Of a stretch of 20,594 bases of DNA, positions 3,217 to 20,594 are shown piece after piece (positions within the stretch are counted from its first letter, which is position 1; every line of letters begins with the position of its first letter). The translations under genes and the position numbers were made by a program. The notes beneath the pieces were generated by a model. The model had not been told where the DNA came from, did no database searches, and worked only from the letters and a program-made list of their open reading frames with translations. The DNA comes from an uncultured Bacteroidales bacterium (GTDB lineage: Bacteria > Bacteroidota > Bacteroidia > Bacteroidales > Muribaculaceae): NCBI GenBank assembly GCA_949123685.1, contig CASBHZ010000051.1, forward strand, positions 1-20,594. The letters are read 5' to 3'.

Positions 3217-4296
3217 ATGGCAGAAGATGATCCCGAGGCTCGGAATAGAGTCAATGCAGCAAATCATGACCCGGACATTTCTTCTGCAGCAAAGGGGACT
3301 TATCGCAACCCGAGGAAACCGAGTTTTAGTCGCAATGCCTTTTGGAATGATTATCACGGTAGGAGAATCTACATGTACACATTCAAAATGGCGAAAGGAT
3401 TCCCTCCGCTGAGCGTAATCAAAGGAAATCCCAAGGTTGCTGATACTGACCAAGATCCTCCAAGAGCTGAATATACCGAAATCGGATATAAGGTATATGA
3501 AATCTTCAATGGCGTATTAGAAAAATACCCTTCGGTTAAGACCCTTAGGCTTCTCCTAATGCCGGATCATATCCATCTCGTTATTTTTGTCACGGAGAGG
3601 ATTGAAGTGCATGCGGGCAGAATCGCCGGTCATCTGAAGAGTGTCTGCAGCTCCCGGCTCAAGGAGTTCGCATCCGAGCCGTCCCAGAACCTGCATAGCG
3701 GCAAAACAGGATTCACCATATTCGACGGCAAGCCGCATCATTCCATCCTGAAAGGGAAGGGACAACTTGAGAAGATGCTGAGATATGTTGACGACAATCC
3801 TCGCCGACATCTTATCAAATCCCGGAACAAGGATTTATTTCGCATCCGCAGGAAGGTACAGATCGGAGAGCACACGTTTGCCACTATCGGCAATATGTTT
3901 CTACTGAGGTACCCCGAAATTATACCTGTAAGAGTGAGACGAAGTTTCTCTGAAGATGAATATTCCACCTACCGACAGGACTGTCTTGAAAAAAGCAGAA
4001 ACGGAGCAGTGCTCGTATCTCCATTCATAAGCACGAAGGAGAAAGAGATCATGAGACTTGCGATGCAGCAAGGCGGAAGGCTGATAATAATACGTAAAGA
4101 AGGCATTCCTGAACGCTATAAGCCATCGGGTGATTTCTTCGATTATTGCGCGAAGGGTAAGTTACTATATCTGGCACCATGGGAATATGACACATGCAAA
4201 CCTACATTGACCCGGGAGGATTGCCTCGCCATGAACAAAATGGCAGAAGAGATCGCCAACCTCGATAAGCCTTGCAAAATCATAAACAATTTATAA
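3217..4296 (+). CDS. RAYT/IS200-like Y1 transposase with C-terminal DprA/Rossmann-like extension
   Basis: The N-terminal half (about 45-220) is a Y1 transposase domain of the REP-associated tyrosine transposase type: HUH-type metal-binding pair His118-Ile-His120 (MPDHIHLVIF), and the presumed nucleophile Tyr190 in LRYVDDNPRR, matching the Y..xNP motif of RAYTs. Such enzymes nick and rejoin single-stranded DNA at hairpins. Typical RAYTs have roughly 150-220 residues; this one has 359. The extra part (about 240-345) contains VLVSPFIS (to 272), ....A...GG.LIII and GKLLYLAP (314-321), a pattern resembling DprA/SMF or LOG-type Rossmann folds; that assignment is inference. AGAGGA lies just upstream of the ATG at 3217. 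Palindromic repeats occupy the preceding gap; the gene ends convergently with a 6-bp overlap on the glycosyltransferase cluster. It looks intact and domesticated rather than part of an IS, since no matching ends are visible downstream. Confidence 0.8.
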   Translation: MAEDDPEARNRVNAANHDPDISSAAKGTYRNPRKPSFSRNAFWNDYHGRRIYMYTFKMAKGFPPLSVIKGNPKVADTDQDPPRAEYTEIGYKVYEIFNGVLEKYPSVKTLRLLLMPDHIHLVIFVTERIEVHAGRIAGHLKSVCSSRLKEFASEPSQNLHSGKTGFTIFDGKPHHSILKGKGQLEKMLRYVDDNPRRHLIKSRNKDLFRIRRKVQIGEHTFATIGNMFLLRYPEIIPVRVRRSFSEDEYSTYRQDCLEKSRNGAVLVSPFISTKEKEIMRLAMQQGGRLIIIRKEGIPERYKPSGDFFDYCAKGKLLYLAPWEYDTCKPTLTREDCLAMNKMAEEIANLDKPCKIINNL

Positions 4297-12596: not shown

Positions 12597-13832
12597 ATGT
12601 TTATGAGAATGAAAAAAAGAATACAACTTGATAAAGTCAAACTTTTCAAGACGGAGACATTGCCGGAAAATCCAGACAATACACAGGAAGATTCTGACAT
12701 TACTCAAGATTGTGGCATTGAGTTTATGCTCGAGGGGGAAACTTTAGCCGGACATGGACCGCAGTCGCCAGCAATAGTTACCGATGAAAACGGGAAAACA
12801 CATCGCAATATGGGAGGATGGCACGAAGTGGAGGTTGCATTCTCTGTTGCGGAAAGTGACATTGTAAGAGTCAATGCATGGTTCGATGACAATTATCAGG
12901 GTGTCACCACTCCAGAAAGTGCAGTCCTCCAGAAAAATCGCACTTCGGCTGTCCATAATGCTCTCAAAACATATTTTAACGCTGCGCATGCATCGAATCT
13001 TTTTACTTCCCCTTTCAGAATAGGATGGATATCCAGATTTACTGACAATTCCCTTTCAGAAATGCATGATTGCGGTTCATTGGATTGTTTTCATACCGCA
13101 CCTCGACTTCCCGTTACAACTCATCAACTCACCGACAAATATCTTTATACCCGCGCACAGGTTAGAAATGTTCCTGCCCGTCTTCATTACAGATTCAAAT
13201 CTTCTGCAGAATTTCTTGCATACCACAGCAAGATCGCGGCAATAGAGATATACGCCACCAAGCAGGTTGCCCTTTATGCTTCGGAAGCAGAAGTCGCCGG
13301 TATACGCAGCATAACTATTGATGGCAATCCTCACCGATGCTGGCATTATGAGAGATACGCAGAAAATGATGTCAGGTTGCTTATTTCTCAAGATAATGAT
13401 TTTCGCAGAATCGCGACAATTCCCATCAATGAAATCGAAGATAATGATGAATTTTCTCCTCTTCCGATAGCACCGGGCACACTAACCGATTTCTCAAAAT
13501 TACCAAAACCTGATTCTTCAACGAGCCAGGAGCCGCCAATGATAGGAAAGAGAATAAAAATACTCACAGAACCGCTCCATCTCGATTATCCCGAAGATGA
13601 AAAAAGCGTTCGGTGCGTCACACTCAGAGGCGTATTCCGAAGAGAAACGACAAAACTACGGCTTTATGCCTCGCAACATCGTGAGAACCGACAGCTCATC
13701 GCCTCAGCTACCGGACCATATATCCGGGGGATATACGGGACGCGGTGGAGGTGGTTTGAAATTGAGATTGAAGCCTCTATGCGCGAAGGTGATTTTTTCG
13801 AAGCCGTGACATTTGAATTCAACGTTTCTTGA
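12597..13832 (+). CDS. Unrecognised 411-residue protein, possibly mobile-element or phage-structural-like
   Basis: I do not recognise this family firmly. There is no signal peptide or membrane segment; ATGs at 12597, 12603 and 12609 are all possible starts and no ribosome site decides between them. The protein looks like a chain of beta-rich modules: WHEVEVAFSVAESDIVRVNAWFDD near 75-100, a middle LHYRFKSSAEFLAYHSKIAAIEIYAT segment, and a C-terminal unit (about 325-411) with TLRGVFRRET, LRLYASQHRENRQLIAS and IRGIYGTRWRWFEIEIE. The last pattern resembles the repeated end of long hypothetical proteins carried by Bacteroidales phages and integrative elements (LYGS...W.L..S....RG..GT.Y..F.I). That link is from memory and unverified. 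Its stop overlaps the end of the SemiSWEET gene by 14 bp, convergently. A terminator stands just upstream and no good promoter is visible. Confidence 0.7.
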   Translation: MFMRMKKRIQLDKVKLFKTETLPENPDNTQEDSDITQDCGIEFMLEGETLAGHGPQSPAIVTDENGKTHRNMGGWHEVEVAFSVAESDIVRVNAWFDDNYQGVTTPESAVLQKNRTSAVHNALKTYFNAAHASNLFTSPFRIGWISRFTDNSLSEMHDCGSLDCFHTAPRLPVTTHQLTDKYLYTRAQVRNVPARLHYRFKSSAEFLAYHSKIAAIEIYATKQVALYASEAEVAGIRSITIDGNPHRCWHYERYAENDVRLLISQDNDFRRIATIPINEIEDNDEFSPLPIAPGTLTDFSKLPKPDSSTSQEPPMIGKRIKILTEPLHLDYPEDEKSVRCVTLRGVFRRETTKLRLYASQHRENRQLIASATGPYIRGIYGTRWRWFEIEIEASMREGDFFEAVTFEFNVS

Positions 13833-14085
13833 AATAGTCGTTATACATCTTTATTCCAAAAACGATAGCGGAAGACGTTCCTGTAATCAAGTTGGTAATC
13901 CAAAGAGGCACATTGCCAAGGAGAAAACCCTGGATAACGAAAAATACCGATCCCAGAAACATCAGAAGAAAAGTAGGAAGCGCGATACCATCCGTATCAC
14001 GGGTGCGGATTGTATATATCGCCTGTGGCAGATATCCAAACACCATACATATTGCGGCTAAATAGCCAATAATTGTTACAAGCAT
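13819..14085 (-). CDS. SemiSWEET (PQ-loop) small-molecule transporter
   Basis: An 88-residue membrane protein with three predicted helices (about 3-21, 37-56 and 59-80), the size and topology of bacterial SemiSWEETs, which dimerise to form a bidirectional uniporter for sugars. The PQ motif is at Pro20-Gln21 (FGYLPQAIYTIRTRDTDGIALP), followed by the charged loop typical of the family. Asn65 in VPLWITNLITG corresponds to the conserved Asn of helix 3 that lines the substrate pocket. A basic C-terminus (YFKKR) faces the cytoplasm by the positive-inside rule. It lies 99 bp downstream of the DUF115-like gene on the same strand. The actual substrate is not determined by sequence. Confidence 0.88.
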   Translation of the reverse strand: MLVTIIGYLAAICMVFGYLPQAIYTIRTRDTDGIALPTFLLMFLGSVFFVIQGFLLGNVPLWITNLITGTSSAIVFGIKMYNDYFKKR

Positions 14086-17696: not shown

Positions 17697-17759
17697 AACA
17701 TTCTGTAGGTGAACTCGAAAGACCTTTCATCCGTTCTAAGGGGAAAAGGTTACGAATTT

Positions 17760-19178
17760 ATGAAACTGCTTTGGAAAACACTCATTGTCTCATCGGCTCT
17801 CGGTTCAATCCAGATTCCGGTATATTCAGAAAAGGTCTCGGAATTGCGAGATTCCATCCCCGATGCATGGACTTACGTGCCTGAGCAAACCACATCGCTA
17901 CCTTCCAACGACCAATGGTGGGAAGGTTTCGATGATCCGGAGTTGACATCATTGATAAAACTCGGAGAAAACAACTCCTTCAACCTTTCAATGGCGCTTC
18001 ACCGCATAGAAATGGCACGCCAGAACTGGGAATCGGCAAAAGCCGCCTATTATCCAACCATAGGAATAAGCGCAGGCTGGACAAAAGAACAACAATCCGG
18101 CATGACTTCCAACCATACGGGCAAGGCAATGGGACTTGACTATTTCTCTTTAGGATTAAACTTCTCATGGGAGATTGACGTGTTCGGCAAAGTTCGCGAG
18201 CAGTCAAAAGAAGGGAAAGCAAGCTATAATGCCTCAAAGGCTGAGTATTCAGCAGCAATGGTATCCCTATGTTCCAATATCGCCACTGCGTATTTCAACT
18301 ACCGACTCGCCCAGCAACGCATCAATGTTGCCCAGCAACAGATAGAATCACAGGAACGCATATCAAAAATTACAGAAGCGCGTTATGAAACCGGATTAGC
18401 TTCAAAACTTGATGTGGCTCAATCTCTGACCGTGCTTTATTCCACTCAGGCAAGCTTGCCCGCACTCATAAACATGCGCACAGCCGCCCTCAACAGCATC
18501 GCCCTTCTCACCGGATGCTACCCGGACAAGATAAAGGATGACTTGTTAGCGGAACGTGAGCTGCCCAATGCTTTCCGAATGGTGAAAATAGGAGTTCCCG
18601 CAGACCTTTTACGCCGACGTCCGGACATACTTCAGGCTGAATACGAACTTGCAGGGTATGCAGCACAGGTGGGAGTGGCTAAAAAAGATTTCCTCCCTGT
18701 CCTCACACTTAATGGAGCAATCGGGACATCCGCCCATAAGATAGATGACCTTTTCAGTAAAAACAGTTTCACATATTCGGTCGCGCCACAACTGTCATGG
18801 ACCATCTTCGAAGGGTTGGCACGCAATCACCGTCTGGCTGCTGCAAAAGAGCAAATGCTGGCAGGCATCGACAATTACAATCTCACGGTGATGAATGCCG
18901 TTATAGAGACCGAAAATGCCCTCTCCACTTATGACAGCGCCCTCCGGCAGATTTCCCTCTACCGGAAAGTTTTAAAAGAGAGTCAGGAAGCATTCTCGCT
19001 TGCCGTGGACCGCTATAAACGGGGACTTTCCTCTTTCACAGACGTGATGAACGCGCAGATCAGTCTGCTCGACTATGAGAACACCCTTTTAGAAACACGC
19101 GCAGCGGCCCTGACATCGCTGATAAAGGTATATGCCGCAGTAGCCGGAAATCCGGCAGAAATAATTGAAAACAACTGA
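17760..19178 (+). CDS. TolC/OprM-type outer-membrane efflux factor
   Basis: First gene of a tripartite RND efflux operon; it forms the trimeric outer-membrane and periplasmic tunnel. I choose the ATG at 17760 (MKLLWKTLIVSSALGSIQIP, a signal peptide) over the upstream GTG at 17709; this gives 472 residues, with GGGGAAAAGG just upstream as a plausible ribosome site. Two outer-membrane-efflux repeats are visible: the first with WWEGFDDPEL and NLSMALHRIEMARQ, the second with GVPADLLRRRPDILQAEYELA, the classic NodT/OprM signature, then YKRGLSSFTDVMNAQISLLDYENTLLE. Most NodT-type factors carry a lipobox cysteine; none is seen here, so it is probably not lipidated. The stop is 4 nt from the adaptor start. 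No local repressor gene is in the window. Confidence 0.93.
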   Translation: MKLLWKTLIVSSALGSIQIPVYSEKVSELRDSIPDAWTYVPEQTTSLPSNDQWWEGFDDPELTSLIKLGENNSFNLSMALHRIEMARQNWESAKAAYYPTIGISAGWTKEQQSGMTSNHTGKAMGLDYFSLGLNFSWEIDVFGKVREQSKEGKASYNASKAEYSAAMVSLCSNIATAYFNYRLAQQRINVAQQQIESQERISKITEARYETGLASKLDVAQSLTVLYSTQASLPALINMRTAALNSIALLTGCYPDKIKDDLLAERELPNAFRMVKIGVPADLLRRRPDILQAEYELAGYAAQVGVAKKDFLPVLTLNGAIGTSAHKIDDLFSKNSFTYSVAPQLSWTIFEGLARNHRLAAAKEQMLAGIDNYNLTVMNAVIETENALSTYDSALRQISLYRKVLKESQEAFSLAVDRYKRGLSSFTDVMNAQISLLDYENTLLETRAAALTSLIKVYAAVAGNPAEIIENN

Positions 19179-19182
19179 TACT

Positions 19183-20280
19183 ATGAGATACTTTTACGTA
19201 ATCGCCGTGATCATATTGACATTGAGCGGCTGCCATAAGAAAAATAAAGCCACGGAAGGGACCACGCCCCAAGTGGAAGTCTCCACGCCGATAATAGATT
19301 CGGTGACGCTTCACCGATCATATCCGGGATATATCCGCGCCGCCAACAGCGCAGACGTGGTGGCGCGTGTAAACGGAATGCTTCTCACTCAGAATTATAA
19401 AGAGGGTGATTACGTAACCAAGGGTCAGGTGCTCTTCACTATAGAGCCATCAAAATATCGCGATGCAGTGCAACAGGCTCAAGCCTCATTAAAGACAGCC
19501 GAAAGCCAATACTCATATGCGTCCAGGCAATATGAAGCCATGAAACGCGCCATCCAGGCGGATGCCGTCTCGGAAATGGAGGTGGTGCAGGCAGAGAGCA
19601 GTATGAACACTGCAAAAGCCGCCATACAGAATGCAAAGGCAGCCCTCGCCACGGCTATGGAAAATCTAAGCTATTGCACCGTGCGCGCCACGCGCTCCGG
19701 ACATTGCTCGATAGCCAACGTATCCACCGGTAACTATCTCAATGGGGAAGCCTCGCCGGTAACACTCGCCAAAATATATGACGACACCGATGTCAAAGCA
19801 GTCTTCGAAATAGAAGATTCCCAATACGAAATGATGATGAACGGAAACCGGGCAGACGAAAACAACCTGTTGAGGTCCATACCCCTGAACTTCCAGAATC
19901 CGCTGCCCCATTCATATACAGCCGACCTCTATTATGTGTCACCCAACGTGGAGACAAACACCGGTACCATACGACTGGAAGGACATTTATCCAATAAATA
20001 CAAAGAGCTGAAAGACGGGATGTATGTCTCCGTAGACCTCCCCTACGGCACTGAACCCAAGGCGATACTCGTGCGCGACGCATCGATCGGCACAGACCAG
20101 CTCGGCAAATATCTTTATGTGGTCAATGACTCCGACAAAGTGGTCTATACACCTATCGAAGTAGGAGAAATATACAGGGACTCTTTAAGGATAGTTAACA
20201 AAGGCATAACAGGTAAAGAGCGTTATGTAACCAAAGCTATCCTCACTGTCCGAAACGGTATGCAAGTGATTCCACGTTAA
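19183..20280 (+). CDS. RND efflux periplasmic adaptor lipoprotein (membrane fusion protein)
   Basis: A 365-residue AcrA/MexA-type adaptor linking the inner-membrane pump to the outer-membrane factor. I start at the ATG at 19183 rather than a TTG at 19165 that lies inside the previous gene. Signal peptide [17 protein letters not shown], lipobox Cys17, so it is anchored by lipid. Order of domains: beta-barrel start ([19 protein letters not shown]), half-lipoyl motif [27 protein letters not shown], alpha-hairpin coiled coil (about 95-150; [21 protein letters not shown]), second lipoyl half and beta-barrel (LNG...VTLAKIYD...VKAVFEIED), then the membrane-proximal domain. The usual A-P-x-D-G at the return lipoyl strand is replaced by RATRSG. 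Ends 13 nt before the pump gene. Confidence 0.93.
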
Positions 20281-20293
20281 TAAATTCAAGAAA

Positions 20294-20553
20294 ATGTTAT
20301 CTAATTTCTTCATAAAACGACCGATATTCGCTACGGTCATTGCCATACTGATGGTATTGGCGGGACTCATGACCCTTAAGTCCCTCCCCGTGTCGCAATA
20401 TCCAGACATAACCCCGCCGACGGTAGTGGTCAACGCCTCATATCCCGGTGCCAACGCCACCACCGTAGCGCAATCGATCGGCGTGCCTATCGAACAGCAA
20501 ATCAACGGAGTTGAAGGGATGCTCTATATGAGTTCCAATTCCGGAGACGATGG
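20294..20553 (+). CDS. RND multidrug efflux pump, 5' fragment (AcrB/MexB type)
   Basis: Start of the inner-membrane proton-drug antiporter (full proteins have about 1000-1060 residues; 86 complete codons are genomic here). The N-terminus [25 protein letters not shown] is the conserved first transmembrane helix with the FIxRPIFA signature, followed by [25 protein letters not shown] and the porter-domain start [16 protein letters not shown]. This clearly belongs to the hydrophobe/amphiphile efflux family and completes the operon. The genomic sequence ends at about 20553. The apparent continuation DRKSVV and stop are translated adapter and must not be read as a truncation of the gene. Confidence 0.95.
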
Positions 20554-20594
20554 AGATCGGAAGAGCGTCGTGTAGGGAAAGAGTGTGTCTCCTT
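20554..20594. other. Illumina TruSeq adapter contamination at the contig end
   Basis: From 20554 the sequence begins AGATCGGAAGAGCGTCGTGT and continues to 20586 as the exact 33-base reverse complement of the TruSeq universal (read 1) adapter. The remaining 8 bases, GTCTCCTT at 20587-20594, sit exactly where an i5 index would be in a dual-index library. This is not biological sequence. Confidence 0.95.

What the first reader, a model, noticed from the sequence alone, without database searches (positions are those of the whole stretch)
20554..20594. Untrimmed Illumina adapter ends the contig and fakes a stop codon in the efflux pump gene
Positions 20554-20586 equal the reverse complement of the TruSeq universal adapter, and the last 8 bases occupy the i5 index slot. 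In frame it reads D-R-K-S-V-V-stop, a tell-tale of adapter read-through. An automatic annotator would report a complete 93-residue protein instead of the start of a pump of about 1000 residues.
Basis: partly seen in the sequence, partly recalled or inferred. Interest (0 to 1): 0.8.

Follow-up and report, generated by a model that had tools for sequence, protein, structure and literature searches.

The report
Sequencing adapter left on contig end
The last 41 bases of this gut-bacterium contig are a leftover piece of an Illumina sequencing adapter, which makes the start of an efflux-pump gene look like a short finished gene; this is a common data artefact, not biology.

Summary
Window 20554-20586 equals, 33 of 33 bases, the Illumina TruSeq P5-side read-through adapter; the sequence ends 8 bases later. 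The adapter and the layout 33 bases + index + GTGTAGATC are documented (PMC7070063, PMC10418082; passages). DNA identity to the nearest relative fetched, L121, is 203 of 260 up to 20553 and 7 of 41 after. Of 80 relatives (capped list), 78 show the RND gene start; these 78 continue with pump sequence, none with DRKSVV. The 33-mer occurs in 120 viral-contig stretches (capped); 105 of 122 matches end within 50 bases of the held sequence's end; a scramble finds none. Four of 397 sampled family genomes carry it near a contig end, one ending 33+8 like the window. The false stop has an annotated precedent: an 'endonuclease' of phage HMD-P3 ends DRKSVV* at the adapter's TAG. Open: which index GTCTCCTT is, whether base 20554 is genomic, and proof from reads, which were not available. 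Artefact; low interest.

The parts
20554..20586 (+). 33-base Illumina TruSeq P5-side adapter as seen at the 3' end of a read-through read (reverse complement of the universal adapter arm); the first A may be an A-tail or a genomic base
   Evidence: exact match, 0 of 100 shuffles; used as the read-2 trimming sequence in PMC7070063 (passage)
20587..20594 (+). 8 bases in the i5 index slot (GTCTCCTT), after which the sequence ends
   Evidence: position and length fit the 33 + index + GTGTAG layout; differs from the single-index continuation AGATCTCG at 6 of 8 bases; index not identified
20294..20553 (+). genuine start (86 full codons plus two bases) of an RND efflux permease gene, cut by the contig end
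   Evidence: Pfam ACR_tran 110.1 bits, residues 3-87; 203 of 260 bases identical to L121
20573..20575 (+). false stop codon TAG supplied by the adapter
   Evidence: ORF end; adapter frame 2 reads DRKSVV*
19165..20280 (+). periplasmic adaptor (membrane fusion) gene just upstream, complete ORF
   Evidence: TIGR01730 RND_mfp 195.5 bits, cut-off 94.9
17709..19178 (+). outer-membrane efflux channel gene, complete ORF
   Evidence: TIGR01845 outer_NodT 322.3 bits, cut-off 210.05

Best explanation
A library fragment of a gut bacterium, by its relatives of the Muribaculaceae kind, ended at 20553 (or 20554). Its insert was shorter than the read, so the sequencer read through the insert into the P5-side adapter and the i5 index. 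The adapter was not trimmed, and the assembler extended the contig 41 bases into it, where it stops. The adapter's second frame supplies DRKSVV and a TAG stop, so the open start of an RND permease gene of about 1000 residues looks like a finished 93-residue gene. Shown: adapter identity, its place at the end of the sequence, loss of homology at the junction, the false stop. Inferred: short insert, read-through, missing trimming, and that the last 8 bases are the index.
For: 33 of 33 bases, single copy, 0 of 100 shuffles. By a 75% rule, 81 of 122 continue with the single-index adapter and 9 of 122 with 8 bases then GTGTAGAT; 23 have fewer than 6 bases left and 9 fit none of these. 28 stretches match adapter + N8 + GTGTAG. 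4 of 397 sampled family genomes have it, with 5 to 16 bases left. DNA identity with L121 falls from 203/260 to 7/41 at the junction. 78 of 80 relatives show the RND start and these 78 continue with pump sequence.
Against: None of weight. The 8 slot bases were matched to no index, and they are not among the 14 slot sequences seen in the 28 stretches; the sequence ends before the GTGTAGATC that would prove the slot. No reads or parent assembly. Five relatives' genomes taken one by one, the nearest (L121) among them, hold no copy (0 of 5), so the artefact is not common to the group. The 33-mer is not only at ends: L092 has it 2.9 kb from the end, and of 7 phage records H1, H3 and H5 have it inside. 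Of these I read only HMD-P3 (H1), which carries a full adapter with index slot and is an artefact too.
Confidence: 0.985

Rival explanations
1. The bacterium really carries the 33 bases, through an insertion or rearrangement that truncates its pump gene.
For: It is in frame and gives a stop, as other sequence might; no reads are on hand to exclude it directly.
Against: Exact identity to a synthetic oligonucleotide in the last bases of the sequence; none of the 78 relatives with the gene start has it; 0 of 72,556 plasmid records and 0 of 20,395 E. coli records match.
Confidence: 0.003
2. The adapter part is right, but the last 8 bases are not an i5 index; they are sequencing error, a linker, a custom adapter continuation or mis-assembly.
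For: One text search for the slot and its reverse complement gave 1 paper, listed for the reverse-complement string and not opened; no viral contig has the slot after the adapter; the sequence ends before the confirming GTGTAG. Garbled tails do occur after this adapter (L053, L103; L224).
Against: Length and position equal the index slot; L225, a relative's contig, ends in the same way after 8 other bases; the single-index continuation differs at 6 of 8 bases.
Confidence: 0.12
3. The adapter came in as a ligation chimera or adapter dimer joined to the fragment rather than by simple read-through.
For: L112 shows both adapter arms back to back at the start of a viral contig, so such molecules do enter assemblies.
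Against: Only the plain 33 + 8 structure is present here, with nothing after it.
Confidence: 0.04

Closest known systems
Illumina TruSeq adapter read-through (P5 side, dual-index layout)
   Same: 33 bases identical, followed by an 8-base slot, at the end of the sequence; documented as a trimming target (PMC7070063, passage) and with the index layout (PMC10418082, passage).
   Different: The index was not identified, and the sequence stops before the GTGTAGATC that follows the index.
Adapter inside phage record PQ462667.1 (Escherichia phage HMD-P3)
   Same: Annotated endonuclease XIJ71931.1 ends ...EHQ-DRKSVV* at the adapter's TAG, the same false stop.
   Different: There the adapter lies inside the record and is complete: slot TTCCTCAG, then GTGTAGATCTCGGTGGTCGCCGTATCATT.
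RND efflux permease, Pfam ACR_tran / NCBIfam RND_permease_1
   Same: The 86-87 genuine residues match the start of the profiles and follow the adaptor and channel genes.
   Different: Only about 8% of the gene is present (87 of 1029 profile positions); the last six residues and the stop are adapter.

Membership tests
Illumina TruSeq P5-side adapter contamination | exact adapter sequence | tested here: met
   33 of 33 bases; sequence as in PMC7070063 (passage)
Illumina TruSeq P5-side adapter contamination | lies at the end of an assembled contig | tested here: met
   ends 8 bases from the window end; that the window end is the contig end is inferred
Illumina TruSeq P5-side adapter contamination | homology to relatives stops at the first adapter base | tested here: met
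   203/260 then 7/41 identical with L121; 78 of 80 relatives (capped list) continue with pump sequence, in the other 2 the gene start was not found
Illumina TruSeq P5-side adapter contamination | 8-base i5 index followed by GTGTAGATC | tested here: inconclusive
   8 bases present, sequence ends before GTGTAG; index not found
Illumina TruSeq P5-side adapter contamination | raw reads soft-clipped at the junction | not testable with these tools
   no tool gives reads; no assembly held
RND (HAE1) efflux permease | match to the start of the family profile, above Pfam's cut-off | tested here: met
   PF00873 110.1 bits, cut-off 28
RND (HAE1) efflux permease | full-length profile match above NCBIfam's subfamily cut-off | tested here: not met
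   131.7 bits against 1250 for NF000282, as only the start of the gene is present; filed as the start of such a gene, not as a complete member
RND (HAE1) efflux permease | next to adaptor and outer-membrane channel genes | tested here: met
   TIGR01730 and TIGR01845 above cut-offs

The most novel reading that the evidence does not exclude
Adapter-made protein ends (DRKSVV-stop, [11 protein letters not shown] and the third frame [10 protein letters not shown]) form a recognisable, largely uncounted class of false C-termini in protein databases, and a screen for these peptides would find many annotated but truncated genes.
Probability: 0.75. Interest if true: 0.25.

Novelty: not a real feature. 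Interest (0 to 1): 0.06.

Why it matters
It matters only as data hygiene. A reader of the annotation could take a cut efflux-pump gene for a complete 93-residue protein, and a protein database could gain a false C-terminus. It also shows that adapter peptides in the three frames can serve as a quick check for cut genes.

Tried and rejected
A real insertion in the chromosome was considered and rejected: the 33 bases equal a synthetic oligonucleotide, a scramble of them is found nowhere in the viral contigs, and 78 relatives with the gene start lack it. A second adapter at the start of the window was sought with the 13-base core and not found; other adapter types were not sought there. The single-index continuation was tested for the last 8 bases and rejected, as 6 of 8 differ. 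The index was sought in papers and in viral contigs without success. I asked whether contigs tend to end 41 bases after the adapter start, as one fixed assembler word length might cause: of 143 adapter starts (122, 21 more), 2 end at 41, and the commonest distances are 47 (14) and 48 (10), partly because the pattern needs at least 47. So 41 is not special. Paper searches for adapter contamination of contigs (listings seen) showed no paper by its title on this artefact in metagenome contigs; passages of PMC7111523 and PMC7218494 were seen, the latter saying that GenBank screens for adapters and that contamination sits mostly in short contigs and contig flanks. The adapter's peptides as strings gave 0 papers, in an open-access library only.

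Full report
What is there. The window ends ...GACGATGG AGATCGGAAGAGCGTCGTGTAGGGAAAGAGTGT GTCTCCTT. The 33 bases 20554-20586 occur once, without mismatch, and not at all in 100 shuffles with up to 3 mismatches allowed. The frame that starts at ATG 20294 runs through the junction into DRKSVV and a TAG, a formally complete ORF of 93 codons.

What the 33 bases are. They are the sequence that one metagenome study passes to cutadapt as the read-2 adapter (PMC7070063, passage seen); 57 papers in the library hold the 33-mer together with words on metagenomes and assembly (listing). Another paper gives the layout as these 33 bases, the P5 index, then GTGTAGATCTCGGTGGTCGCCGTATCATT (PMC10418082, passage seen). 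The window ends 8 bases after the 33, at the end of an 8-base index slot. The 8 bases differ from the single-index continuation at 6 of 8 positions.

Controls in public sequence. Of the 122 matches in them, 105 have at most 50 bases after the adapter and 119 at most 300. The three others are L092, 2.9 kb from the end; L112, where the adapter stands at the start of the contig and is followed by the other arm; and L049, where it lies reversed near an end. By a 75% rule 81 of 122 continue with the single-index adapter and 9 of 122 with 8 bases and GTGTAGAT; 23 have fewer than 6 bases left, and 9 fit none of these, some of them garbled or cut index tails. A scan for adapter + 8 + GTGTAG found 28 stretches with 14 different slot sequences, GTCTCCTT not among them. 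A scramble of the 33-mer found none. Five relatives' genomes searched one by one hold no copy. In a sample of 397 genomes from the family of L121's genome, 4 hold the 33-mer, with 15, 5, 16 and 8 bases left before the contig ends, and the last of these, L225, ends after exactly 8 further bases, as the window does. Among annotated collections, 0 of 72,556 plasmid records, 0 of 20,395 E. coli records and 7 of 50,697 phage records match. Of the 7 phage matches, 3 (H4, H6, H7) lie within 75 bases of a record end, 1 (H2) about 260 from the start, and 3 (H1, H3, H5) inside.

Where biology stops. The nearest is L121 (79% identity); the titles of the close ones name Porphyromonadaceae, Muribaculaceae, Muribaculum, Barnesiella, Heminiphilus, Duncaniella and the like, and the protein database calls an adaptor protein from a contig of L121's length a Muribaculaceae one (P0124), so placing the window near Muribaculaceae is an inference. 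In 78 of the 80 the start of the RND permease gene was found; these 78 go on past the window's junction with pump sequence, most often (G)SY.LT(I/V)TF, and none with DRKSVV. On the DNA level 203 of 260 bases agree with L121 from 20294 to 20553 and 7 of 41 from 20554 on. The first adapter base also agrees with L121, so it may be genomic or the A-tail of the library fragment (the A-tail step is recalled knowledge).

The gene. The genuine 86-87 residues match the start of Pfam ACR_tran and of NCBIfam RND_permease_1, the latter far below its full-length cut-off because the gene is cut. The two upstream genes are an adaptor and an outer-membrane channel, above their cut-offs. The contig therefore holds what looks like an ordinary tripartite efflux operon cut in its third gene. 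Which compounds it exports cannot be told.

The false protein. The warning about annotation has direct precedents. In phage HMD-P3 (PQ462667.1) the annotated endonuclease XIJ71931.1 ends ...EHQDRKSVV* at the adapter's TAG, with a full index slot and adapter behind it. Among the 120 listed relatives of the window's ORF (of 1039 found), P0119 ends in [11 protein letters not shown], the adapter's first frame, and P0004 ends in DRKSTL, which resembles the other adapter arm (recalled) but not exactly. In the viral set, 18 of 122 adapter matches have an upstream frame open for 60 codons or more that runs into DRKSVV*; no gene prediction and no control was made there. The window's own 93-residue product is not in the list, so for this contig the misannotation is a forecast. 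P0034, identical to the first 71 residues, comes from a 1900-base contig, and P0121 is nearly identical to the adaptor protein, so close kin of this organism have been sequenced elsewhere.

Verdict. It is adapter read-through at a contig end: a known kind of artefact, correctly read. Not settled: the identity of the index, the exact junction base, and direct proof from reads.

Noticed in passing
L226 (phage record PQ462667.1, 7418-7755): A deposited 'complete' phage genome holds a full Illumina adapter with index slot TTCCTCAG inside the record; it ends one annotated endonuclease with DRKSVV* and lies between it and a second CDS also called endonuclease.
   Followed up: partly
L112, from about position 10: Both Illumina adapter arms stand back to back at the start of a viral contig.
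   Followed up: no
L148, L150, L161, L166: MAG records titled Paenibacillus, Lachnospiraceae, Alistipes timonensis and Staphylococcus carry an adaptor gene 49-53% identical to the window's and an RND gene like those of the Muribaculaceae loci; the record titles look wrong.
   Followed up: no
window 3217-4296 (+): Weak match to Y1_Tnp, 20.2 bits with cut-off 23; resembles REP-associated transposases (recalled).
   Followed up: no
window 13819-14085 (-): 88-residue PQ-loop protein (PF04193 51.7 bits, cut-off 22; MtN3_slv 22 bits, below its cut-off 23.7), SemiSWEET-like by size (recalled).
   Followed up: no
window 19165-20280 (+), P0121: The nearest database copy of the adaptor protein has Y where the window has C in LSGC, the expected lipoprotein site.
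   Followed up: no
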